Source of the DNA: Carboxylicivirga linearis
Lineage (GTDB): Bacteria > Bacteroidota > Bacteroidia > Bacteroidales > Marinilabiliaceae
Assembly (NCBI RefSeq): GCF_018271995.1
Contig: NZ_JAGUCO010000002.1
Span: 434,001-498,000 of the forward strand
Direction: 5' to 3'
Length of the DNA: 64,000 nt
The position numbers and the translations under genes were made by a program. Below, one piece after another: positions 30,145 to 41,017 of the stretch. Positions within the stretch are counted from its first letter, which is position 1. Every line of letters begins with the position of its first letter. Below the pieces are notes generated by a model. That model did no database searches and had not been told where the DNA came from. It was given only the letters and a program-made list of their open reading frames with translations.

Positions 30145-33100
30145 CTAATTTTTGTTCTTTCCTATCTCCTCTTTAATCCCCTGCACTCCTTTAGCAATCT
30201 CTTCCATTTGAACCAGAACATGAGCTGTTTGATTATTATCACCCATACCTTTTAGTTTATTATTGCGAACAAAGGTCTCTTTTAGTTCCTTCCAGCGTGT
30301 TTGTTCCTCTGTAGTTATCACTCCATAAATCTCTTTAAACTTCAGGATGTTTGCTTCTGCACCACTGGTCAGTGTTTGCGCTTCGTTTCGATAATGCGAT
30401 TGCAGTAGAGTTTCCAATTCCTGATCATTCATAACAGGAAGAATCTTCTCTGATATCTTATTCATATCACGATACGAGCCCTGTAATTTAAACGGAGGTT
30501 CTGTTCGATATTCATCCGCCTGAGCAGCTGAGGCTATGTATTCCAGATTCACTTTTAAGATGATATCTCGAGCTATTATCAGCTTTTTAAGTACGGTAAC
30601 GTATTCATTCACTTCTTCAGGCGTATGAGCCGATTCAAATTCTAATCCGTCTTTTCGACCGGTTTGAGCGATGGAAATTAGGGTATATAAATCCTTTTGA
30701 CTCTTGGTGGCCAGTTTATTCAATATCGGATTCGATGTTAAAGAGTTTTCGATATAACTCATCTTGAATTCTTCATCGGAGCCACCAATAATATCACCAA
30801 TATTGTAGATATCGGCACGGTTGGCCAACATATCAGGAATCTTGAACTTCTCACCACTCTCAGTGTAAGGGTTACCAGCCATTACCACACACACTTTCTT
30901 ACCCCTGAAATCGTAGGTTTTACTCTTGCCTTTGTAGACCCCTTCCACCTTGCGTTGAGCATCACAAAGGGAGATGAACTTCTGCAAAAACTCAGGATTA
31001 CAGTGCTGAATATCGTCAAGGTAAATCATTACGTTATCACCCATTTCAAAAGCCAGGTTCAATTTCTCCAATTCCTCACGGGCAGCGGCATTGGCTGCTT
31101 CAGAAGGATCAAGCGATGTAATAGCATGACCAATAGACGGACCGTTGATCTTCATAAAGATGATTCCTAAACGACTTGCCAGGTATTCCATTAAAGTGGT
31201 TTTACCATAACCCGGAGGTGAAATCAACAGTAACATACCCATTAAGTCGGTGCGCTTACCAGCACCTTCGGCTCCAATTTGTTTAGCAAGGTTATTACCT
31301 ATCAATGGCAGATAAACCTTATCAATCAACTTATTTCGCACAAACGAGGTGAGCACACGAGGTTTAAACTCATTCAAACGTAAATCGTCAGAACAGTCTT
31401 TCACCAATTGCTTTTTCAGAATGTTATATTGCTCATATTTAATAACACTATCACCACTAAAAAATCTCAGCTTATCCATAAAGCGATTAAAATGGAAACG
31501 ATATTGTTGCCCTTCAATCAACTGATGAGAACCTTTCAAACCGACCAGTACATTATGCACAGGCTGATCTATGAGTTGCTTTCTCAGTTTAGAATCCAGC
31601 ATTAGCGTTATTGTAACCTCATTCAGATATTCTTCTGATTGTTTTTCCATGACCAGATAGGCTTTAACCCATTTTCTGATTAATCGATACGAGGCTTTTT
31701 TATCATCTTCCAATGGCTTGATAGATGCTTCATAATTTTTAGTCGCCCTGTTTTTGCGCAGATAGCCTGTAAAACCATCCAACAAACTCACAGCATCTTT
31801 CGAAATAATAAATTCATCGGCTTCAGCCATTTGATAAAACAGAAATTGTGCAGCATCATTAATTATAGGCACACAAAACAAGTTTGTTTTCTCCTGAAAT
31901 TCTTGTAACAGACTTTTCAATGTGTCTATCAGGTAATCGAACTGCTTTGTTTCCGGAAATACTTGAACAATCAACCCCGCACCTTTCAGGTTGTTATTTA
32001 AATCCTTGCGCAATTCGTCATCACAATACACATTCCAAAAATACTCAGCCATAGCACGAGCATCTGCTGAATAGCGCAATAAGCCAGCGTTGAAATATAC
32101 GTTCAACAACTCTTTTAGAATAATGGCAGCATCCTCATCATGAATGCCTTTAGCATATCCTTCATTGTATCGCACCGACATAGCTTTTTGAACATAACCA
32201 ACTAGTTCCTTCTGCTCCAACTCTGCCAGTTCCTTTAATCCTAAATGCCCTTCTTCTTTATTTAACGATGAAGTATACAATAGATAAGCCAAATATTCAG
32301 CACGATAAACGCGATCATTCTCCGAGGGTAATAATTGATTCCAGATAGTTTTGGTAGCCTGAAAATCAGCATTAGTTACCTTCTCAAAGAAATTAGTTCC
32401 GGTAAGGTGATAATACATCTCACCATCCTTATTCACCATCGAAAGCTCCAACGGCTGCGTGTTCACCGAAAATTTATGATTGCCAAACTTGATGATGTTG
32501 GCCCCTTCTTCAAATAACTCAGTTTTATCTTTTATCTGACGGATGGTTTCTTCCTTCACTGACTTTAGCTTACTCTCTAGATCATCCGCTTTTACATTAT
32601 CATCCAGTTCTTTGAGTTGAATAACCACATCACGAACCTTCTCAATCATCAGATCCGAAGCAAAATAACCATTCACATCATTTACATCTTTAAACTTAGA
32701 AGCACGATTACGAATCGCTTTTAATATTCTTTCAGCAGATGATTGTAAGGAAGTTGTTTTACGGTTACGTTCTTCAACCAAGCTCAACTTCTTCGATTCA
32801 AAAGCATTGTATACCTGCTCTCGCTTCTCTGAAATACCATCCATAAATTCTTCGAAGTCGGAAAACTTACCTTCCAACTCTTCCAGCTGAACCATCAATT
32901 TAGATAGATATTCATCTGCCTTACCCGGAGAATCACACAGGTCGATATAATTGAGCATACCTTGCTCAACCAACTTCAATTGAGATGTAAATTCAGCCTT
33001 AGCTTCAACTGCACGCAAGCCTTTACGTTGCTTTTTTAGTTCCGATTTAATCAGGTTAAACTGCGAATATACAGCTGAAATATTATTGATGATTTGTGTG

Positions 33101-35046
33101 GTTTGAGTAGCATCTTCAATCTTCAGGTTGCTAACAATATCAATCAACATCTCCAGCTGATCTGCCAACTTCATTATCTCTTCCGAAAGTTCATCAGCCT
33201 CGCTTACCTTTTTCACCTTACTAACGTTGGCTCTGATCTCATCTACTTTATCGTTGTATGAATCTAAAGCTTCATCACGCAAAAGAAAAGTAACACAGTT
33301 CTGTGAGAGACTTTGCGTTCTCTCTTCCACCTCTGTTTCGAGCTTTTGAACCTTATCCAAATCAACATAGCGAAGCTCACGAAGTGTAATTATCTCACCT
33401 CGAACCGTTCGTAATGCAGCCAACATATCAACATATCTGTCGATATGATTCATATTCTGCCTGTTGAGGTGACTGATAATCTCGTTTACTTTATTGTCAG
33501 TTTCTTTAACTCTATCCTTGGTATTTTTTCTAATATTGCGGACCTTTTCATATTCTGTAATCGCAGAAAAGGCTGATTCTTTTATCTTAACTAGTGGTGA
33601 TTTAATATCAAACGCATCCTCCTCGGATAACCAATAATAAGTATCCATTACGTCGGTGCATCGCTTTACCAAATCGCCATAAACACCCGAATACGATTCA
33701 TCTTTGTTTACAAGCAGAATCACCTCGTTACATTCGGCCATGGCTTTTACCACATCCTTATTTCCAATCTTAAACAGGCGATTATTATTGGTAGGTTGTT
33801 TTTGATATTCAACAGCCATAAATGGCGTTTGCCACATTTGAATCACATGGTGACGAGTAGGTTCATCTGGTTTCTTGAAATAGCAAAGTTCACCTGTTTC
33901 AAAAATAGAGAAACCATTACAAACGATAGGCGTTTCAATTTTTTGATTGATCAGATTATAAATCAATAAAACATAGGCTCCAATCTCGCGATTGTAAAAT
34001 GTATATAAGAAATCTTCGCCATTGATTGAGGCAATTTTCTTTTCAAACATCAGATCATCAAAATCTGTATCAAACAGCTTAAATTGGCCATTCTGTAGAT
34101 AATATCCATTAGCAAATATCACCCCTTGATTATCGGGTAATAAAACACATGAATCTTCCAAGGCATCAATACGTTTTACTTCCTGAACTTTGGAATTATA
34201 TACAAAATATCGATATTCTTTTTCTTTATATGGAAGGATACGAATGACAACCAGATTACCGATAATGGCATAATCAATATCTGCATCATCCAGAGTTTGG
34301 TCATGAACTTCAACTTCCTCGGCATAAATTCCCATGCCGCTGTCAGTATTGTCTTCAATCTTAAAGGTGATATCACCTCCAACAGCTTCCACAAACACAA
34401 TATCCTCGATTGATACATGCGGATGCTCGCCATACACATATTGCTCACGACTGGCTTTCACCCATTGAAACTCATGTTGATCGGGAAACACAAACTCATG
34501 CGTACTTCTGTTTCCCAGATATTCTAATTTTGTACCTTTTACCAACCACTTAAACGCTTTGATATCATCAACATTTTTACCCGTTTGAAACACCATAAAC
34601 AAATGGGGACCAATGATAGCAAACTTTCTGAATTGCGTTTCTTTGTAGTATTCATATAAATTCTCAAAATCGGTAACAAACTGTTGATCACCGATTATAT
34701 TCATATTCTTTTGCGCGAATTTATGTTCTTTAAAATCATAAACACTGAAGACATCATCCAAACTGATTTTGGATTTAAGACCCATTATTACATTGTAACC
34801 AAACAACATAGTTTCACCTAATGCAATCATATCCGCAGGGGTACAATTGTTTTGCGTATTAATTCTATCGGTTGCAATAAGGGTACTCTCCACTGAACCA
34901 AATACCTCTTTACGGGCTGCGTTCAGTTTTTCCAATCTTTGATCAAGGTCATCAGCATTCTTTCGAAGTCGGTTCTTTATTATCTCATAAGTTCCTTCTT
35001 CGAGTTGTTCTTTATTTTCGGGATTGGTGTTTTGATTCTCAGACAT
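30145..35046 (-). CDS. Giant coiled-coil AAA+ ATPase ('DNA repair ATPase' family)
   Basis: This 1633-residue protein has an N-terminal ~450-residue beta-rich, propeller-like region. A long coiled-coil stretch follows (about 480-880), then a helical middle and a C-terminal AAA+ domain. Walker A is SPPGYGKTTLMEYL near residue 1280 and Walker B is VMIYLDDIQHC near 1340, with a sensor-1-type VVMAGNPYTE after it. Similar proteins are annotated 'DNA repair ATPase', but no DNA-repair evidence is visible. The gene lies in the same orientation behind flotillin, OB-fold membrane protein and PspA genes. A role in remodelling PspA or flotillin assemblies, as Vps4 does for ESCRT-III, is inference. Confidence 0.85.
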   Translation of the reverse strand: MSENQNTNPENKEQLEEGTYEIIKNRLRKNADDLDQRLEKLNAARKEVFGSVESTLIATDRINTQNNCTPADMIALGETMLFGYNVIMGLKSKISLDDVFSVYDFKEHKFAQKNMNIIGDQQFVTDFENLYEYYKETQFRKFAIIGPHLFMVFQTGKNVDDIKAFKWLVKGTKLEYLGNRSTHEFVFPDQHEFQWVKASREQYVYGEHPHVSIEDIVFVEAVGGDITFKIEDNTDSGMGIYAEEVEVHDQTLDDADIDYAIIGNLVVIRILPYKEKEYRYFVYNSKVQEVKRIDALEDSCVLLPDNQGVIFANGYYLQNGQFKLFDTDFDDLMFEKKIASINGEDFLYTFYNREIGAYVLLIYNLINQKIETPIVCNGFSIFETGELCYFKKPDEPTRHHVIQMWQTPFMAVEYQKQPTNNNRLFKIGNKDVVKAMAECNEVILLVNKDESYSGVYGDLVKRCTDVMDTYYWLSEEDAFDIKSPLVKIKESAFSAITEYEKVRNIRKNTKDRVKETDNKVNEIISHLNRQNMNHIDRYVDMLAALRTVRGEIITLRELRYVDLDKVQKLETEVEERTQSLSQNCVTFLLRDEALDSYNDKVDEIRANVSKVKKVSEADELSEEIMKLADQLEMLIDIVSNLKIEDATQTTQIINNISAVYSQFNLIKSELKKQRKGLRAVEAKAEFTSQLKLVEQGMLNYIDLCDSPGKADEYLSKLMVQLEELEGKFSDFEEFMDGISEKREQVYNAFESKKLSLVEERNRKTTSLQSSAERILKAIRNRASKFKDVNDVNGYFASDLMIEKVRDVVIQLKELDDNVKADDLESKLKSVKEETIRQIKDKTELFEEGANIIKFGNHKFSVNTQPLELSMVNKDGEMYYHLTGTNFFEKVTNADFQATKTIWNQLLPSENDRVYRAEYLAYLLYTSSLNKEEGHLGLKELAELEQKELVGYVQKAMSVRYNEGYAKGIHDEDAAIILKELLNVYFNAGLLRYSADARAMAEYFWNVYCDDELRKDLNNNLKGAGLIVQVFPETKQFDYLIDTLKSLLQEFQEKTNLFCVPIINDAAQFLFYQMAEADEFIISKDAVSLLDGFTGYLRKNRATKNYEASIKPLEDDKKASYRLIRKWVKAYLVMEKQSEEYLNEVTITLMLDSKLRKQLIDQPVHNVLVGLKGSHQLIEGQQYRFHFNRFMDKLRFFSGDSVIKYEQYNILKKQLVKDCSDDLRLNEFKPRVLTSFVRNKLIDKVYLPLIGNNLAKQIGAEGAGKRTDLMGMLLLISPPGYGKTTLMEYLASRLGIIFMKINGPSIGHAITSLDPSEAANAAAREELEKLNLAFEMGDNVMIYLDDIQHCNPEFLQKFISLCDAQRKVEGVYKGKSKTYDFRGKKVCVVMAGNPYTESGEKFKIPDMLANRADIYNIGDIIGGSDEEFKMSYIENSLTSNPILNKLATKSQKDLYTLISIAQTGRKDGLEFESAHTPEEVNEYVTVLKKLIIARDIILKVNLEYIASAAQADEYRTEPPFKLQGSYRDMNKISEKILPVMNDQELETLLQSHYRNEAQTLTSGAEANILKFKEIYGVITTEEQTRWKELKETFVRNNKLKGMGDNNQTAHVLVQMEEIAKGVQGIKEEIGKNKN

Positions 35047-35232
35047 AAAATCAAGTGTTAGTTAAAGGTAGATGGCACAATCAGCCAGAAGCATATTCCT
35101 TAATCAAGTATGATACTCCTAACCTATCACCTTAAACAAATATTCAATAATATTAACCACTAATAAGAATGACTGTTTTGAATTTTTCATCCACTCTTAT
35201 TTTCAAACTATGGTATGCAAAATATATTAATC

Positions 35233-35267
35233 AAGGAACGATTTTCTATTTACGAAAATCGTTCCTT
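35233..35267. terminator. 14-bp perfect hairpin between flotillin and AAA genes
   Basis: AAGGAACGATTTTC and GAAAATCGTTCCTT are perfectly complementary around a 7-base loop. The T tract lies on the plus-strand side; on the minus strand (the direction of the flanking genes) it is followed only by TTGATTAATATATTTT. It may act as a partial terminator or RNA-processing/stability site separating flotillin and AAA expression. Confidence 0.65.
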
Positions 35268-35287
35268 TTTGAAGTATTAATTTGCGT

Positions 35288-37423
35288 TTAGATTAATCCT
35301 AAACTCTTAGCTGAGCTATTTGAAACACCCAAACTTTTGGCTATTTCACTCAGACTGGTCAACATGTTGCCCGTTTTTTTATCGGTATTTTTTTCCATCA
35401 TCTGACCAATTAAAGCACTTATACTTAGGTTGCGTATATCTTCTGACGATACTCCAAACTGATCAACGAAAGTAGCAAATTGATCCTTAAAGCTTTTTCC
35501 ATCCGGACTATCAAAGAAATGTTCTTTGATATCAGTTATAATCTGACTGTTATTTACTACTTTATCTACTTGCTTACCTTGAGTGATGGAACCAATAATC
35601 TTATCGAAGAACATAGTTTCACCACCCACAATATCGATATTGGCAGCTTTCAGTGCTTCAGCAATAACCTGAGCCTGGGCATCAGCAATACCTTTCTGAA
35701 TATTGATACGAGCCAATTCAAGCTCTTTTTCCATATCCAGTTTCAACTTGAATTCTTCGTGGTCACGACCAACAGCATCCAGTTTCTTCATAGCCATACC
35801 TTTCTCTTCGATACCTTTTGCTTCAACGCCATAGCGTTCGTCAAGAACTTTGTTTTCAGCTTGTCCTTTTTCAGCTTCTGCATTACCCTTAGCCTTAATC
35901 ACTTCAGCTTCAGACTCACCAACTTTCTGGATTGACTCAGCTTCTGCTTGTGCTCTGGCTTTGGTTCCTTTCGCTTCAGCTTCCGCTTTTAATTCCATAA
36001 TACGAGCCTCGTTAACTCCTTGTTTTTCCATTGCATCAGCTTTGGCTTCAATTACCTGAGCTTCAGCAACACCCATAGCAGCTTCTTCAGCAGCTTTAGC
36101 CTCAGCCATAATCTTAGTGGCTTCCGCTTTTTTACCTGCAGCTTCAAACTCCGCTTCGGCATCAATCAACTTAGTTTTAGCATTGTGCTCAGCCGCATTT
36201 TTAGATGCTTCAGCAGCTTTAATCTCACGAACAAATGCTTCTTCCGCATCCATTTCAGCTTTGGTAATAGCCACTTTTTTAGCCCTGTCTGCGGTAGCAA
36301 ATTCTTGCGTATCTTTAATTTTCTCTTGCTCGGCAACGGTTGCTTTTTCTACTTCAACACGCTCGCGAATAACTTCCTGAATTTGCTTTTTCTGCATTTC
36401 CACTTCTTTCTCTTTCGCTATCTGAGCCAGAGTAACTACTTTTTCGCGTTCAGTTTGCTTTAAGGCACGCTCTTGTTCTACTGCTTCTGATTCGACCGCT
36501 TCAACTCTTTCGCGGTTTTTCTCAGCTATCACAACCTGACGTTCTTTATTTTTTTCAGCAACTGCCACTTCCTCTTCAGTAGCAATACGAGCTTTATCAG
36601 CTATTAAACGTTGCTCCTGTGCAACTTTAGCAATTTCAGCTGCCTGACGATCTTTGATGTTGGCTATTTCACGCTTTTGATTTTCTTCCGTTTCTGCTAA
36701 CTGACGTTCCAGTTCTAAAACAGTTTCGCGTGCTTCAACATCCTGCTTTGTAATGGTTTTTTGCTTGTCACGCTCAATTTGGTTAGATAGAATTTTTTGT
36801 CTGGCAGTAAGCTCAACAATCTTCTTAATACCCTCTGAATCCAGGATATTATTTTCAGATAGCGATTCCAAAGGAGTTTGCTCCAGGAAGTCAATGGCAC
36901 AGTCATCAAGGATATAACCATTTAAATCCGTACCAATGATATTCAAGATTTCGTGTTTGAATTTCTCTCGGGAGTTATACAATTCCACGAATTCAAACTG
37001 TTTCCCAACTGTTTTTAATGCTTCGGAGAATTTAGCATCAAACAGTTCAACCAATGCCTTGTGATCAGAAGCTCTGTTACATCCGATGGACTGAGCCACC
37101 TGAATAACATCTTCACTGGTTTTGTTTACACGAACAAAGAAAGCCACTTTAATATCAGCTCTCATATTGTCCCTACAGATCAAACCATCTTTACCTTGAC
37201 GTTCAATGGTTACCGTTTTCAGTGTAATATCCATTACCTCCATTCTGTGGAGTATAGGTATAACAAACATACCTGTAAAGGTTACCTTCGCACCTCCGGC
37301 ACCGGTACGCACCAAAGCATGACCTTGCGTTGCCTTGCGGTAGGTCTTTATAATCAGTGCAATTATACCAATTGCGACTATTACCAGTAAAATAATTACT
37401 GAATAACTTAATGATTCTAACAT
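35288..37423 (-). CDS. Flotillin/SPFH-domain protein (YqiK-like)
   Basis: This 711-residue protein has one N-terminal membrane segment (about 8-28). An SPFH/band-7 domain follows (about 35-230, RTGAGGAKVTFTG, RADIKVAFFVRVN), then an extremely long Ala/Glu/Lys-rich coiled coil (about 230-620), the flotillin signature, and a C-terminal ~90-residue tail. It matches bacterial flotillins of the YqiK/FloT type that scaffold membrane microdomains. The OB-fold membrane protein gene lies 3 bp upstream, the same pairing as yqiJ-yqiK of E. coli. Confidence 0.93.
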   Translation of the reverse strand: MLESLSYSVIILLVIVAIGIIALIIKTYRKATQGHALVRTGAGGAKVTFTGMFVIPILHRMEVMDITLKTVTIERQGKDGLICRDNMRADIKVAFFVRVNKTSEDVIQVAQSIGCNRASDHKALVELFDAKFSEALKTVGKQFEFVELYNSREKFKHEILNIIGTDLNGYILDDCAIDFLEQTPLESLSENNILDSEGIKKIVELTARQKILSNQIERDKQKTITKQDVEARETVLELERQLAETEENQKREIANIKDRQAAEIAKVAQEQRLIADKARIATEEEVAVAEKNKERQVVIAEKNRERVEAVESEAVEQERALKQTEREKVVTLAQIAKEKEVEMQKKQIQEVIRERVEVEKATVAEQEKIKDTQEFATADRAKKVAITKAEMDAEEAFVREIKAAEASKNAAEHNAKTKLIDAEAEFEAAGKKAEATKIMAEAKAAEEAAMGVAEAQVIEAKADAMEKQGVNEARIMELKAEAEAKGTKARAQAEAESIQKVGESEAEVIKAKGNAEAEKGQAENKVLDERYGVEAKGIEEKGMAMKKLDAVGRDHEEFKLKLDMEKELELARINIQKGIADAQAQVIAEALKAANIDIVGGETMFFDKIIGSITQGKQVDKVVNNSQIITDIKEHFFDSPDGKSFKDQFATFVDQFGVSSEDIRNLSISALIGQMMEKNTDKKTGNMLTSLSEIAKSLGVSNSSAKSLGLI

Positions 37424-37426
37424 TCT

Positions 37427-38131
37427 TTAGATTTTATAGGGTTCTACTAAATAACATTTCTTTTCAGGAATATATTCGATAATCAATGCGGTTTGACCTT
37501 TATCAAGTACAATTGATTCATCTTTAGTAAGGATATTAACACGATACGTATTTCCATCGCGTTTAATTTCAGCCTGACCAAATCGATTATGGCTGGCTTG
37601 CATCAGAACGGTACACATTTTACCAGTGTATTTAAACTGATCGTCATCGTTCTTTTTAATTTTTGTAAATATGGCAGCAATTGGAGTTGTGAGAATTTTA
37701 GAAACTAACAAACTTGCAACTACATTTGGAATAAGAGCTACCAAAGAAATTATGAAGGAACTATTATGAAGGTAATGATTAAAGAGAATGGATATCACCC
37801 ACATGGGAATTATCAGGAAACTTAACCATACCATAAAGGGTATTTTACCTAGGTTGAAGAAGGTTAGTATGGAGTTGAGAAAGGCTACCGAACCAATATC
37901 ATGACTATCTGCTTCTACGTCCGAATCAACATCTGCATCAGCATCCATATCAACGTCCGCATCCACATCTACGTCAACATCTAAATCAACATCGGTTTCT
38001 ATATCAACATTGATTACATCCATATCCATGGCACCAATAATGACAAATATCCAGTAAACCAGTATCAACAGCAGGAAAACTGTAGGGATTATATTCACTC
38101 CCGAAAACGCAGCTTCAAATAGTTCCTTCAT
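37427..38131 (-). CDS. OB-fold membrane protein (YqiJ/NfeD-like) with Asp-rich segment
   Basis: This 234-residue protein has an N-terminal membrane helix (about 15-34). A striking acidic stretch spans residues 36-75, where Asp alternates with Val/Ala/Met (DVDLDVDVDVDADVDMD). Membrane helices follow at about 83-150, then a C-terminal OB-fold (about 160-234, YTGKMCTVLM, GQAEIKRDGNTYRVN). Such proteins accompany flotillins (YqiJ/NfeD role) and are thought to organise them. Gene spacing of 3 bp to the flotillin gene supports a complex. The acidic stretch may bind Ca2+ or basic partners; that is inference. Confidence 0.87.
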   Translation of the reverse strand: MKELFEAAFSGVNIIPTVFLLLILVYWIFVIIGAMDMDVINVDIETDVDLDVDVDVDADVDMDADADVDSDVEADSHDIGSVAFLNSILTFFNLGKIPFMVWLSFLIIPMWVISILFNHYLHNSSFIISLVALIPNVVASLLVSKILTTPIAAIFTKIKKNDDDQFKYTGKMCTVLMQASHNRFGQAEIKRDGNTYRVNILTKDESIVLDKGQTALIIEYIPEKKCYLVEPYKI

Positions 38132-38220
38132 GAGTTAGGGTTATTAATAGTTCATTTGTATTTAGGCAGAAAGTAATCCTTAATCTATAATTACTTATCT
38201 AACTAAAATCTGGTATTCAT

Positions 38221-38253
38221 AAAAAGAGGTTAATGCACTTTTGCACTAACCTC
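38221..38253 (-). terminator. Terminator between pspA-like and OB-fold genes
   Basis: On the minus strand GAGGTTAGTGCA and TGCATTAACCTC pair (12 pairs, one G-U) around a 4-base loop, followed by five T. It lies 7 bases after the PspA gene stop, so the pspA transcript may end or be attenuated here. Confidence 0.85.
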
Positions 38254-38259
38254 CCAATG

Positions 38260-38976
38260 TTATTCTTCTTTTTTATTTGCAGCTAATTTAGCTTTTAACT
38301 GTGCTAACGACTCAGATGCTTCAGCTTTATTAGCTCCACCTATTGCTGTATCAATCTCATCATCCAATGATTTTGATTCACCGGCAATATCACCATAAGC
38401 TTCTGCCAAAGCTTCTTCTTGATTGACTTTTTCCTTCATCTTTTCAAGCATACTAATAGTACTTCCTGAATCGATCTGAGCCATTTGCTTATTTATATTT
38501 TTGGTTGCCGAACTTACTTTAACACGAGCTTTTAAAGTACGCAACTCGTTTTCGTAAGTACTGATTTGCGAACGAAGCTTTTTAATGTTTGCATCTAACT
38601 GAGCAATATTCTGGTCGAATTTATCTACTTCCTTCTGCTTATCGGAAGCAAAGGCAGCACATTCTTCTTTTTTAGTTAAAGCTTCCGTTGCCAAACGATC
38701 AGCTTCATCAGCAGAAATCTCCCCACTCTCAGCTTTTTTCAACAATAATATAGCTTTGTTCTCATAATCCTTGGCGCGATTACGATTGGTTTCCAAGTCG
38801 TTTTTAGAACGAATAGCTAAAGCTTTAACTTCAGCAAATGCTTTAAGACTATCGTCCAAATTCTTTTTTAAATCCCTGATGCCTTGTTCTGTCATCTTAA
38901 TGGGATCTTCTAATTTATCTATAGCTGAATGAGCCTCAGCGGTTCCTATTCTAAATAATCTACTAAATACATTCAT
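38260..38976 (-). CDS. PspA/IM30-family membrane-remodelling protein
   Basis: This 238-residue, almost wholly helical protein has the PspA/Vipp1 layout: amphipathic start (MNVFSRLFRIGTAEAHSAID), then 'KLEDPIKMTEQGIRDLKKNL', the conserved helical hairpin (about 25-150) and a charged C-terminus ending AANKKEE. PspA proteins are bacterial ESCRT-III homologues that coat and repair the inner membrane. This one is nearer the YjfJ-type than classic E. coli PspA in its linker. Its start codon overlaps the YbjN-like gene stop by four bases (ATGA). Confidence 0.93.
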   Translation of the reverse strand: MNVFSRLFRIGTAEAHSAIDKLEDPIKMTEQGIRDLKKNLDDSLKAFAEVKALAIRSKNDLETNRNRAKDYENKAILLLKKAESGEISADEADRLATEALTKKEECAAFASDKQKEVDKFDQNIAQLDANIKKLRSQISTYENELRTLKARVKVSSATKNINKQMAQIDSGSTISMLEKMKEKVNQEEALAEAYGDIAGESKSLDDEIDTAIGGANKAEASESLAQLKAKLAANKKEE

Positions 38977-39380
38977 GACACTAATTCTTTTGAGGATAAC
39001 TTAATAATTTCGTTTGCATACTCGCTAAGGAGCAGACTTAGAGAGTTAATTGAACCTTCCAGTTCATTCAAATCCAAATTTTCAATCTGAAGTGTATCCC
39101 TGAAGATAACTTTATGTCCGCTTTCATCTAAAACAAAAGCTCCATGAACGATGTCCCTGTTTTTCATCAATAGTTGTTTAAATACACTCAGACTATCTTC
39201 TTCGATCTCGAAAATGAATTGCTCCATAATAAGGATAGGGTCGGCACAACCAAGAACCAAATTTGCAATACCTTCTTCAGGTTTATTCACTACAAAAACA
39301 CCATCTTCTTCGTGCTCTGTAACTATTTCACAATTTAATTCCAATAGGTAGTTTCTTACTTTTTCAAAATACTTGTCCAT
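38973..39380 (-). CDS. YbjN-like / CesT-fold small protein
   Basis: I chose ATG 39380 (MDKYFEKVRNYLLELN), since the frame's longer upstream part is basic and unlike the family; the product is 135 residues. It resembles the YbjN/type III chaperone-like fold: helix, strand 'CEIVTEHEEDGVFVVN', then 'ANLVLGCADPILIMEQFIFE', 'FKQLLMKNRDIVHGAFVL' and a C-terminal helix. In E. coli-type clusters a similar small acidic protein (YjfI/YbjN) accompanies PspA homologues. It is coupled to the PspA gene by a 4-bp overlap and is the first gene of the cluster. Confidence 0.8.
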   Translation of the reverse strand: MDKYFEKVRNYLLELNCEIVTEHEEDGVFVVNKPEEGIANLVLGCADPILIMEQFIFEIEEDSLSVFKQLLMKNRDIVHGAFVLDESGHKVIFRDTLQIENLDLNELEGSINSLSLLLSEYANEIIKLSSKELVS

Positions 39381-39532
39381 TGTCGAGTGATTTAAACTAA
39401 TTTTTCGGGTTTTGAATTTAAATAATTTTCTCTTTTCATAAAGCACAAATTGTTAATTTAAAAATATTCTAAGAAAAGGTTAAAGTAATTAGCAATTATC
39501 AATATTATTTTTTTATTTTGACAATTACATTA

Positions 39533-39582: not shown

Positions 39583-40320
39583 ATGAGTTTTTTTGGAAAA
39601 AATATTCGCAAGATTCGCTCAATTAAAAAAATAAGCCAATCAGAATTTGCATCTATCTTTGATTTATCAAGGGCTAGCGTAGGATCATATGAAGAAGGAA
39701 GAGCTGAACCTAAAATTGAAATCATTAATAAGGTAGCTAAATATTTTAGCATCACAATTGATGAGTTGATAAATAAGGAGCTGACCGTAAATGAACTTTA
39801 TCACTTCGACGTTGGGAATGAACCTGCATTTAAGAACGCTTCTATTAAAAACATATCAGTCAGAAGGATTCCTTTTTTATACTCAAATAAACTAAGTAGT
39901 ATTAATAATAAGGAAGGGCTAACTTCTGAAACGTATATTGAAATACCTCTGGAGAGCAATCTCACCAATTGCATTGCTATACATATAAACAATAATGATT
40001 TTGCATGCACTCCGCATAACATACAAAACCAAAGTACCGTAACAATAAATTTACAACAAGAATTGCCTTCCAACGCAAGTTCATATTACTTGATTAAAAC
40101 AAGCAATGCTATATTTATTAGCAAGCTAAATATTTTAGCAAATAATCAGTTTCATATTCAAGACGCATTGAATGACTTTACCATAATATCAGCCGATGAT
40201 ATTGTTTTTTGTTATCCTGTTGTACAATATATGGGTGGCCTACCCTGCGAAGACCCAAATAGCAGAATAGAAAAACTGGAGCAACAACTCAATCAAATCA
40301 TATCAAAATTTATACAATAA
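39583..40320 (+). CDS. XRE-family regulator with degenerate S24/LexA-like domain
   Basis: This 245-residue protein begins with a helix-turn-helix (residues about 5-60, SQSEFASIFDLSRASVGSYE). Residues about 100-220 are beta-rich and arranged like the S24 peptidase-type sensor domain of LexA/CI proteins, with NDFACTPHNIQ where the catalytic Ser block would be and FISKL where the Lys block lies. The Ser nucleophile is missing, so self-cleavage is unlikely. A short coiled coil (RIEKLEQQLNQII) ends it, suggesting dimerisation. It sits head-to-head with the PspA-flotillin cluster. Confidence 0.85.
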   Translation: MSFFGKNIRKIRSIKKISQSEFASIFDLSRASVGSYEEGRAEPKIEIINKVAKYFSITIDELINKELTVNELYHFDVGNEPAFKNASIKNISVRRIPFLYSNKLSSINNKEGLTSETYIEIPLESNLTNCIAIHINNNDFACTPHNIQNQSTVTINLQQELPSNASSYYLIKTSNAIFISKLNILANNQFHIQDALNDFTIISADDIVFCYPVVQYMGGLPCEDPNSRIEKLEQQLNQIISKFIQ

Positions 40321-40327
40321 ACTTCCC

Positions 40328-41017
40328 ATGCAAGAAACATTAGACTATCTCAAATCTTCACTTGAAGACAAAATTTTATCGAAAGCTGAAAAGAAAGCTT
40401 TAAAATCAATTTTAGTAGATAAAAATCTTTCGAAGCATGATTTAAACAGATTAAGAAGCGACATTTTTAATGCTGCACGCGATCATCTTCCTGAATTTAA
40501 ACATCAACAAATATTGGATTGGCTGGAAGAAGCTAATAAACTAATCTTACCAAAGGCTACTCCATCGTTTTATTGCAAATCATACTTTAGTCCGGGTACT
40601 GATTGTGCCAATGCCATAATGAATCAAATCAGTTATGCCGTTAACACAATCGACATTTGTGTATTTACCATTAGCGATAACGATTTAAGAGATAAAATTG
40701 AATATGCTTTGGGTAAAAAGGTTAAAGTGCGAATCATAACCGACAATGAAAAAACATTAGATTTGGGTTCGGATATAGAGTACCTTTTTCGTAAAGGCGC
40801 ATCCATTAAAATAGATAATACAAGTCATCACATGCATCATAAATTTGCTATTTTTGACAAAAGCATCTTGCTGACCGGAAGTTACAACTGGACACGCAGT
40901 GCCGCTCAATACAATCAGGAAAACATACTGGAAACCAACGATCCGAAAGCTATAAATGATTATCAGAATGAATTTAACCGACTTTGGGAGACCATGGAAG
41001 ATTACTATTTTCAATAG
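40328..41017 (+). CDS. Phospholipase-D-type protein with one HKD motif
   Basis: This 229-residue protein has an N-terminal helical domain (about 1-75, TerB-like in pattern: ILSKAEKKALKSIL). A PLD domain follows at about 80-225 with a single HxKxxxxD motif (HHKFAIFD) followed by GSYNWTRSA. One-motif members act as dimers and include the Nuc endonuclease and mitochondrial PLD/Zucchini proteins, which cleave nucleic acid or cardiolipin. Which applies here is open; the membrane-stress neighbours make a phospholipid substrate plausible. The gene starts eight bases after the XRE gene, so the two form an operon. Confidence 0.88.
   Translation: MQETLDYLKSSLEDKILSKAEKKALKSILVDKNLSKHDLNRLRSDIFNAARDHLPEFKHQQILDWLEEANKLILPKATPSFYCKSYFSPGTDCANAIMNQISYAVNTIDICVFTISDNDLRDKIEYALGKKVKVRIITDNEKTLDLGSDIEYLFRKGASIKIDNTSHHMHHKFAIFDKSILLTGSYNWTRSAAQYNQENILETNDPKAINDYQNEFNRLWETMEDYYFQ

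What the first reader, a model, noticed from the sequence alone, without database searches (positions are those of the whole stretch)
30145..39380. PspA - OB-fold - flotillin - giant AAA+ module: possible bacterial ESCRT-like membrane system
Five same-strand genes encode a YbjN-like protein, the ESCRT-III homologue PspA, a YqiJ-like membrane protein, a YqiK-like flotillin and a 1633-residue coiled-coil AAA+ ATPase. Individual links (PspA with AAA ATPases, YqiJ with YqiK) are known from the Psp and flotillin literature. The giant ATPase is annotated as 'DNA repair' in databases with little support. Here the context argues it works on membrane scaffolds.
Basis: partly seen in the sequence, partly recalled or inferred. 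Interest (0 to 1): 0.75.

Follow-up and report, generated by a model that had tools for sequence, protein, structure and literature searches.

The report
Flotillin with its own AAA+ ATPase
The window holds a five-gene membrane-stress operon whose layout was published in 2024; the survey made here suggests that its giant "DNA repair" ATPase belongs with a special flotillin, a membrane scaffold protein, rather than with the ESCRT-like protein PspA.

Summary
The five genes are there, in order, on one strand. Ravi et al. 2024 already described this operon (CesT/Tir, PspA, YqiJ, flotillin, propeller-coiled-coil-AAA+ ATPase), its form without PspA, and ESCRT-like analogues (PMC11237479). Gene 1 is CesT_Tir_1, not YbjN.

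My survey shifts the weight. In 59 related loci with at least 9 kb upstream, YqiJ and flotillin accompany the ATPase in 57, PspA in 31. Of 28 genomes whose operon lacks PspA, 12 have none over Pfam's cut-off. The flotillin's C-terminal 168 residues ("FlotC", my name; no Pfam match in the window copy) have strong hits in exactly the 28 genomes with the ATPase, of 514 searched in two phyla; 21 others have a YqiK-like flotillin without FlotC or ATPase. The AAA+ model has a pre-sensor-1 hairpin and resembles NorQ/CbbQ more than the Vps4-clade chains listed.

Best explanation: an AAA+ remodeller dedicated to a flotillin cage, with CesT-PspA and a divergent HTH regulator as an added stress cassette. 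Linked flotillins form one clade, so docking at FlotC is inferred, not shown.

The parts
30145..35046 (-). ATPase, 1633 aa: beta-propeller (DUF3686), coiled coil (DUF7902), helical middle region, C-terminal AAA+
   Evidence: models of residues 850-1633 (mean pLDDT 86.3) and 1-870 (85.7)
33634..34950 (-). DUF3686 segment of the ATPase, residues 33-471; beta-propeller
   Evidence: PF12458 E 7.3e-185; matches include WD40, clathrin terminal and prolyl-oligopeptidase propellers
30457..31299 (-). AAA+ core, about residues 1250-1530: Walker A K1282/T1283, Walker B D1344-D1345, sensor-1 N1392, candidate arginine finger R1410, pre-sensor-1 hairpin about 1366-1379
   Evidence: columns invariant in 39 sequences; hairpin strands in the model; best TM-scores with NorQ/CbbQ. 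Motif names are recalled, not from a call
35288..37423 (-). YqiK-like flotillin, 711 aa
   Evidence: E. coli YqiK found at 7e-60 by the family profile
36845..37324 (-). SPFH (Band_7) domain of the flotillin (alignment A5)
   Evidence: PF01145 E 3.3e-12; 34 of 34 rows match
35291..35794 (-). FlotC: C-terminal region of the flotillin, residues 544-711 (alignment A4); named here
   Evidence: no Pfam match at E <= 0.01 in the window copy; strong hits in the same 28 genomes as DUF3686
37427..38131 (-). YqiJ-like (NfeD/YuaF-type) membrane protein, 234 aa
   Evidence: profile of 75 relatives finds E. coli YqiJ at 4.6e-11
38260..38976 (-). PspA/IM30 protein, 238 aa
   Evidence: PF04012 E 7.8e-44; phmmer hits solved Vipp1/PspA chains, best 3.1e-14
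38973..39380 (-). CesT/Tir-type chaperone-like protein (GTG start possible at 39446)
   Evidence: PF22550 E 4.7e-57; starts aligned
39583..40320 (+). Divergent HTH regulator, likely controller of the operon (inferred)
   Evidence: HTH_3 E 2.1e-9; of 59 loci, present in the 29 with CesT and in 0 of the other 30
40328..41017 (+). Single-HKD phospholipase D-like protein, 7 bases after the HTH gene
   Evidence: PF13091 E 4.1e-29; motif HHKFAIFDKSILLTGSYN

Best explanation
The core is a three-protein membrane machine: a YqiJ-type OB-fold membrane protein, a flotillin expected to form a membrane-attached cage, and a giant AAA+ ATPase dedicated to that flotillin. The ATPase most likely binds the cage through the special C-terminal region of the flotillin (FlotC), which should sit at the narrow, cytoplasmic end of the cage. 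Its beta-propeller and coiled coil would recognise cargo or scaffold, and its MoxR/NorQ-like AAA+ ring would use ATP to remodel the cage or whatever the cage holds. In this host and many other Bacteroidota a second cassette (CesT chaperone, PspA, divergent HTH regulator) is added. PspA would supply membrane repair, CesT would hold PspA or regulate the operon, and the regulator would switch it on under envelope stress. Shown here: gene content, near-constant flotillin and YqiJ, optional PspA, FlotC-ATPase co-occurrence, conserved ATPase motifs, predicted fold. Inferred: cage formation, solubility and oligomer state of the ATPase, docking at FlotC, remodelling, stress control.
For: YqiJ and flotillin in 57 of 59 loci with at least 9 kb upstream; the two exceptions (L041, L066) have a FlotC flotillin elsewhere in the genome. 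A flotillin with FlotC beside the ATPase in 12 of 12 matching plasmid-collection records from Pseudomonadota, Actinomycetota, Deinococcota and Bacteroidota (two Proteus records score alike, so 11 distinct), PspA in 2 of 12, YqiJ in 11 of 12. Among 514 genomes the 28 with DUF3686 are the 28 with strong FlotC hits, the two lying 123-1439 bases apart on one contig in 28 of 28; 21 further genomes have a YqiK-like SPFH hit (E < 1e-25) and neither. FlotC undetected at E <= 10 in 18 of 18 ATPase-less flotillins that I examined, E. coli YqiK included; one of them (L164) is only a 284-aa frame. Two linked SPFH domains scoring 156 and 162 bits still have FlotC, four unlinked ones at 169-179 bits do not. 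ATPase motifs invariant in 39 of 39. In the 50 Foldseek rows shown, 8 of 10 NorQ/CbbQ chains have TMt 0.51-0.59 (the other two 0.42, 0.43) against 0.38-0.41 for spastin, FIGNL1 and Msp1. Precedent: HflK/C cages hold AAA+ hexamers, and in human flotillin the C terminus lies at and narrows the narrow end (PMC11260169, abstract and passages).
Against: ATPase-linked flotillins fall on one side of a single branch of the SPFH tree (64 rows against 18, support 87, below the star), so FlotC and the ATPase may share one origin and the co-occurrence is not a set of independent events; many of the 28 genomes are relatives (5 of 171 genera in Bacteroidota). No complex was modelled and no binding is shown. 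Sequence does not settle the AAA+ type: PF00004 (AAA) and RuvB_N match 39 of 39 rows as AAA_5 does, PF00004 scores best in the window, and the best sequence hits in the PDB are p97/Cdc48 chains, over the Walker A segment. By Foldseek E-value MCM chains come first; RuvB scores TMt 0.36-0.42. Walker B ends D-D, not the usual D-E, so the hydrolysis rate is unsure. In P. aeruginosa, deletion of the SPFH gene of the bac operon had only a mild effect (about 20% less biofilm; PMC13086221, passages). In the evenly drawn Bacteroidota sample PspA is in the operon in 10 of 10.
Confidence: 0.55

Rival explanations
1. ESCRT-like pair: the ATPase disassembles PspA polymers as Vps4 does for ESCRT-III, with flotillin marking the membrane site.
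For: PspA adjacent in 31 of 59 loci and in 10 of 10 Bacteroidota genomes of the evenly drawn set. PspA resembles solved Vipp1/PspA chains. The best PDB sequence hits of the ATPase are classical AAA proteins such as p97. Ravi et al. propose ESCRT-like analogues.
Against: 12 of 28 genomes with the ATPase and no operon PspA have no PspA over the cut-off (9 no match at all, two of these Pontibacter isolates). The PspA label needs 9 changes on the ATPase tree. Pre-sensor-1 hairpin in the model and no MIT match.
Confidence: 0.2
2. The unit is a stress cassette in which the ATPase acts on both flotillin and PspA, or on membrane proteins confined in the cage, as a MoxR-type assembly chaperone; flotillin is only the platform.
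For: Best TM-scores are with NorQ and CbbQ, which are assembly or activation chaperones (function recalled). CesT-PspA-HTH and the core form separable blocks.
Against: Does not explain why the flotillin C-terminal region tracks the ATPase, and no shared client gene was found upstream of 29 PspA-less cores.
Confidence: 0.17
3. DNA repair ATPase, as annotated.
For: Pfam description of PF12458; 5 of 12 plasmid-collection records name it DNA repair ATPase or protein; weak RuvB_N similarity at the P-loop.
Against: No nucleic-acid-binding domain among the Pfam matches apart from that P-loop similarity. Near-constant neighbours are membrane-type proteins. DUF3686 gave 0 papers, and of 48 papers with 'DNA repair ATPase' none of the 15 listed was about this family by title or abstract start.
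Confidence: 0.03
4. FlotC-ATPase co-occurrence is inherited operon linkage without physical contact.
For: ATPase-linked flotillins are one side of a branch; the genes are adjacent in 57 of 59 loci (on opposite strands in L091) and in 28 of 28 genomes.
Against: L041 and L066 keep both although no flotillin gene lies in the 10 kb held on either side of the ATPase; the pair is kept across several phyla while PspA comes and goes.
Confidence: 0.05

Closest known systems
CesT/Tir-PspA + band-7/flotillin + YqiJ + AAA+ operon of Ravi et al. 2024 (PMC11237479)
   Same: Same five components, same AAA+ with coiled coil and beta-propeller, same abbreviated form without PspA, HKD gene in some Proteobacteria (section 19 read in full; other passages).
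   Different: The parts that I read give no counts for the ATPase, no distinct flotillin C-terminal region, no MoxR-type assignment and no divergent HTH for this group; figures, tables and supplements were not seen.
Pseudomonas aeruginosa bac operon (bacA-F; PMC10948618)
   Same: CesT-like BacA, PspA BacB, NfeD-type BacC and SPFH BacD in the same order (abstract and passages); PA3728 is called 'ATPase' in a table of PMC8190622.
   Different: BacA is DUF2170, not CesT_Tir_1; a putative sigma-54 site; that BacE is PA3728 or has DUF3686 was not checked by sequence here.
HflK/C-FtsH and prohibitin-m-AAA (SPFH cage with an AAA+ protease)
   Same: SPFH protein paired with an AAA+ enzyme at the membrane (listings and passages; m-AAA recalled).
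   Different: No protease domain matched in this ATPase (a membrane anchor was not tested); flotillin subgroup; extra C-terminal region.
MoxR-type AAA+ (NorQ, CbbQ)
   Same: Best TM-scores, AAA_5 match in 39 of 39, pre-sensor-1 hairpin.
   Different: Fused to propeller and coiled coil; helix-2 insert not evident; partner is a flotillin. Whether a VWA protein exists in these genomes was not searched.
Archaeal/eukaryotic ESCRT-III-Vps4
   Same: PspA is reported to have an ESCRT-III-like fold (seen as a citation); an AAA+ gene lies nearby.
   Different: AAA+ features, no MIT match, PspA dispensable to the gene association.

Membership tests
Ravi et al. CesT/Tir-PspA-flotillin-AAA+ operon | CesT/Tir, PspA, YqiJ-type, band-7/flotillin and propeller-coiled-coil-AAA+ genes together | tested here: met
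YqiK-type flotillin | SPFH domain, YqiK similarity, YqiJ partner | tested here: met
   Band_7 3.3e-12; YqiK 7e-60 and YqiJ 4.6e-11
YqiK-type flotillin | C terminus like that of E. coli YqiK | tested here: not met
   a different region, FlotC, stands there
ESCRT-III/Vps4 | ESCRT-III superfamily member | tested here: met
   PspA PF04012, similarity to solved Vipp1/PspA; that these count as ESCRT-III superfamily is published, recalled
ESCRT-III/Vps4 | Vps4-type AAA+ without pre-sensor-1 hairpin, closest to the spastin/FIGNL1 group | tested here: not met
   strands 517-522 and 525-530 of the model; TMt values; clade feature recalled; Vps4 itself is not among the 50 rows shown
ESCRT-III/Vps4 | MIT domain | tested here: not met
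   no Pfam match at E <= 0.1
ESCRT-III/Vps4 | ATP-dependent disassembly of the polymer | not testable with these tools
   needs biochemistry
MoxR AAA+ | pre-sensor-1 hairpin and MoxR-like core | tested here: met
   AAA_5 matches 39 of 39, but so do PF00004 and RuvB_N
MoxR AAA+ | helix-2 insert | tested here: inconclusive
   no strands seen between model residues 457 and 471
DNA repair ATPase | acts on DNA | not testable with these tools
   no DNA-binding domain matched except weak RuvB_N at the P-loop

The most novel reading that the evidence does not exclude
An unrecognised class of SPFH-AAA+ machine: a flotillin cage whose C-terminal FlotC roof is the dedicated docking site and substrate of a giant MoxR-like, beta-propeller AAA+ remodeller, spread as a unit across Bacteroidota, Planctomycetota, Pseudomonadota, Actinomycetota and Deinococcota, to which PspA repair cassettes are attached or lost.
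Probability: 0.4. Interest if true: 0.75.

Novelty: new member of a known kind. Interest (0 to 1): 0.5.

Why it matters
The mechanism of bacterial flotillins is poorly known. If a subset has a dedicated ATP-driven remodeller, cage opening or turnover becomes directly testable with two genes and one C-terminal truncation. It would also correct a 'DNA repair' label (5 of 12 plasmid-collection records), and would make PspA an optional attachment instead of the centre of the system.

Tried and rejected
Considered: a Vps4-binding-like motif at the PspA C terminus; dropped because the Leu-rich tail looked like an ordinary PspA helix; not tested. DNA repair: no support found. Defence system: no PADLOC hit at E <= 0.01 for the ATPase; I took the hits of the PLD and HTH proteins as generic domains and did not follow them. 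Phage origin: no match among phage records. A conserved partner replacing PspA upstream of PspA-less cores: among 29 loci the only shared groups were pairs of loci (L024-L025, L062-L071, L044-L100) or same-locus paralogues. PDB searches with the SPFH and FlotC profiles gave no hit at E <= 0.01 for SPFH and, for FlotC, one at E 0.04 to a chain named O43_129 component A, which I did not follow.

21 of the 80 with under 9 kb upstream were left out of the 59; one of them, L096 (8.7 kb), shows no flotillin in the locus but its genome has FlotC. Presence means anywhere in the locus; in L091 flotillin and YqiJ are on the other strand. Two shortened Rufibacter PspA genes count as PspA. L085 was counted as having PspA because its Pfam match lies in the locus; my first profile and the clean rerun missed it, so other diverged PspA genes could be missed, though by coordinates I saw none. 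Many genomes are MAGs and no completeness is given for genomes reached through loci. In one search, 5 of 14 genomes had no FlotC hit; in all five the ATPase starts within 1.6 kb of a contig end. Not counted as strong: one partial FlotC hit without ATPase (G074, E 6e-5). Set aside as other SPFH proteins: 27 and 2 weaker SPFH hits (E 9e-12 to 7e-4). The second phylum is that of G421, the genome of L099, whose record title is Rhodopirellula baltica; the genomes themselves are unnamed.

Error: one row of the PspA2 profile was a wrong-strand translation of L002 with stops; the profile was also used. Clean reruns gave no further PspA in the 29 PspA-less loci at E <= 0.1 and the same 2 of 12 plasmid-collection records.
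Full report
Observation. The minus strand of 30145-39380 holds five consecutive genes: CesT_Tir_1, PspA_IM30, a YqiJ-type membrane protein, a YqiK-type flotillin and a 1633-residue ATPase. The flotillin has no Pfam hit as a whole, but its SPFH segment gives Band_7 at 3.3e-12, and 34 of 34 rows of the alignment match Band_7. Profiles built from relatives find E. coli YqiK (7e-60) and YqiJ (4.6e-11).

Known work. Ravi et al. 2024 (PMC11237479; section 19 read in full, other passages seen) describe the same operon, its abbreviated form without PspA, and a general role of analogues of ESCRT-like complexes. PMC9239133 (2022; passages) notes band-7 genes next to pspA in Bacteroidota. The finding is therefore largely a rediscovery. 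In P. aeruginosa the bac operon looks related (PMC10948618, abstract and passages): RT-PCR shows six co-transcribed genes, and a bacA mutant accumulates the other Bac proteins 6.1- to 13.5-fold. Deletion of its SPFH gene, paFlo3, gave about 20% less biofilm (PMC13086221, passages). PA3728 is listed as 'ATPase' in a table of PMC8190622 (passages); I did not verify it by sequence.

Distribution. DUF3686 was found in 10 of 395 Bacteroidota genomes and in 18 of 119 genomes of the phylum of G421, Planctomycetota by the title of L099. In the 10 Bacteroidota genomes the full five genes plus a divergent HTH gene are together in 10 of 10. Of the 59 with at least 9 kb upstream, 57 have YqiJ and flotillin, 30 have PspA by my profile (31 with the diverged PspA of L085), 29 CesT, 29 HTH and 6 PLD. 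HTH, CesT and PspA go together: 29 loci have all three; L039 has PspA alone by my profile, and L085 a diverged PspA. So there are two blocks, HTH-CesT-PspA and YqiJ-flotillin-ATPase.

PspA is optional. A whole-genome search of the 29 genomes without an operon PspA by my profile found PspA over the cut-off in 17, one of which is L085's own; of the other 28, 16 have it and 12 do not (9 no match, 3 weak). On the ATPase tree of 87 rows the PspA label needs 9 changes. Pontibacter lacks it while its sister Rufibacter has a shortened copy.

Flotillin is near-constant, and a special one. Two of the 59 loci have no flotillin in the locus, but both genomes have one elsewhere. The ATPase-linked flotillins share a C-terminal region (window residues 544-711, FlotC) where YqiK and the ATPase-less Bacteroidota flotillins have another end. 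FlotC has strong hits (E < 1e-30) in exactly the same 10 of 395 and 18 of 119 genomes as DUF3686, 123-1439 bases from it on the same contig. YqiK-like SPFH domains (E < 1e-25) occur in 12 and 9 further genomes, which have neither. In 12 of 12 matching records of the plasmid collection a FlotC flotillin lies beside the ATPase; PspA is there in 2, YqiJ in 11. FlotC was not detected at E <= 10 in 18 of 18 ATPase-less flotillins examined (one is a short frame). Against over-reading: the 64 linked SPFH domains are one side of a branch from the 18 others (support 87), so this may be one event kept ever since.

The ATPase. Models of residues 850-1633 and 1-870 have mean pLDDT 86.3 and 85.7. The N-terminal part is a beta-propeller, as Ravi et al. 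said. Walker A K1282, Walker B D1344-D1345, sensor N1392 and R1410 are invariant in 39 sequences. Two strands (model residues 517-530) before the sensor-1 strand form a pre-sensor-1 hairpin. Of the 50 Foldseek rows shown, 8 of 10 NorQ/CbbQ chains have TMt 0.51-0.59 (two 0.42-0.43), above spastin, FIGNL1 and Msp1 (0.38-0.41) and RuvB (0.36-0.42); MCM chains rank first by E-value. By sequence the picture is mixed: AAA, AAA_5, AAA_22 and RuvB_N all match 39 of 39, and the best PDB sequence hits are p97 chains over the Walker A segment. This argues against, but does not exclude, a Vps4-type enzyme; the exact AAA+ clade remains open because the helix-2 insert was not evident.

Mechanism. Human flotillin forms a cage whose C terminus lies at the narrow end, and HflK/C cages contain AAA+ hexamers (PMC11260169, abstract and passages). 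By analogy FlotC should face the cytoplasm at the narrow end and receive the ATPase. This is inference. The same host has a second CesT-PspA pair in a spermidine-synthase operon, which fits the view of CesT-PspA as a movable stress cassette.

Not in print, as far as searched: DUF3686 gave 0 papers, and searches combining flotillin with AAA+, MoxR, PspA or YqiK (listings only, 20 of 116, 7 of 7, 3 of 4 and 3 of 3 papers listed) showed no title or abstract start on an ATPase-specific flotillin C terminus; of the listed papers I looked into passages of PMC11237479, PMC13086221, PMC2636767, PMC10948618, PMC9239133 and PMC8190622. The library holds open-licence papers and, by its own statement, no bioRxiv preprints.

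Noticed in passing
L175 592-6010 (own genome, G000:C93:489500-500000): The host's second PspA sits in a CesT-PspA-DUF4178-(no match)-DUF350-spermidine synthase-AdoMet decarboxylase run, like another CesT-PspA group of Ravi et al.; both operon types coexist in one genome.
   Followed up: partly
window 40328-41017; L022, L027, L030, L033, L040, L053, L138, L140: A single-HKD phospholipase D-like gene recurs beside the operon in Bacteroidota, one Planctomycete, and directly after the ATPase in Vibrio and Photobacterium, with the motif HHK(F/Y)A..D......GS(Y/F)N.
   Followed up: partly
L085 6149-7230: Kiritimatiellota B12222 has a diverged PspA next to a Phage_CP76-like gene immediately upstream of yqiJ, possibly an independent PspA recruitment.
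   Followed up: no
L027 4154-4780, L036 4895-5503: Rufibacter PspA open frames are shortened and diverged, perhaps on the way to the loss seen in Pontibacter.
   Followed up: no
L134 1031-14235 (plasmid pQBR103): One plasmid run joins YjfI-PspA and polyamine-type genes with YqiJ-SPFH-ATPase, combining two published operon groups.
   Followed up: no
window 31012-31029: Walker B of the ATPase ends D-D, not the usual D-E (recalled), and the pair is invariant in 39 sequences.
   Followed up: no
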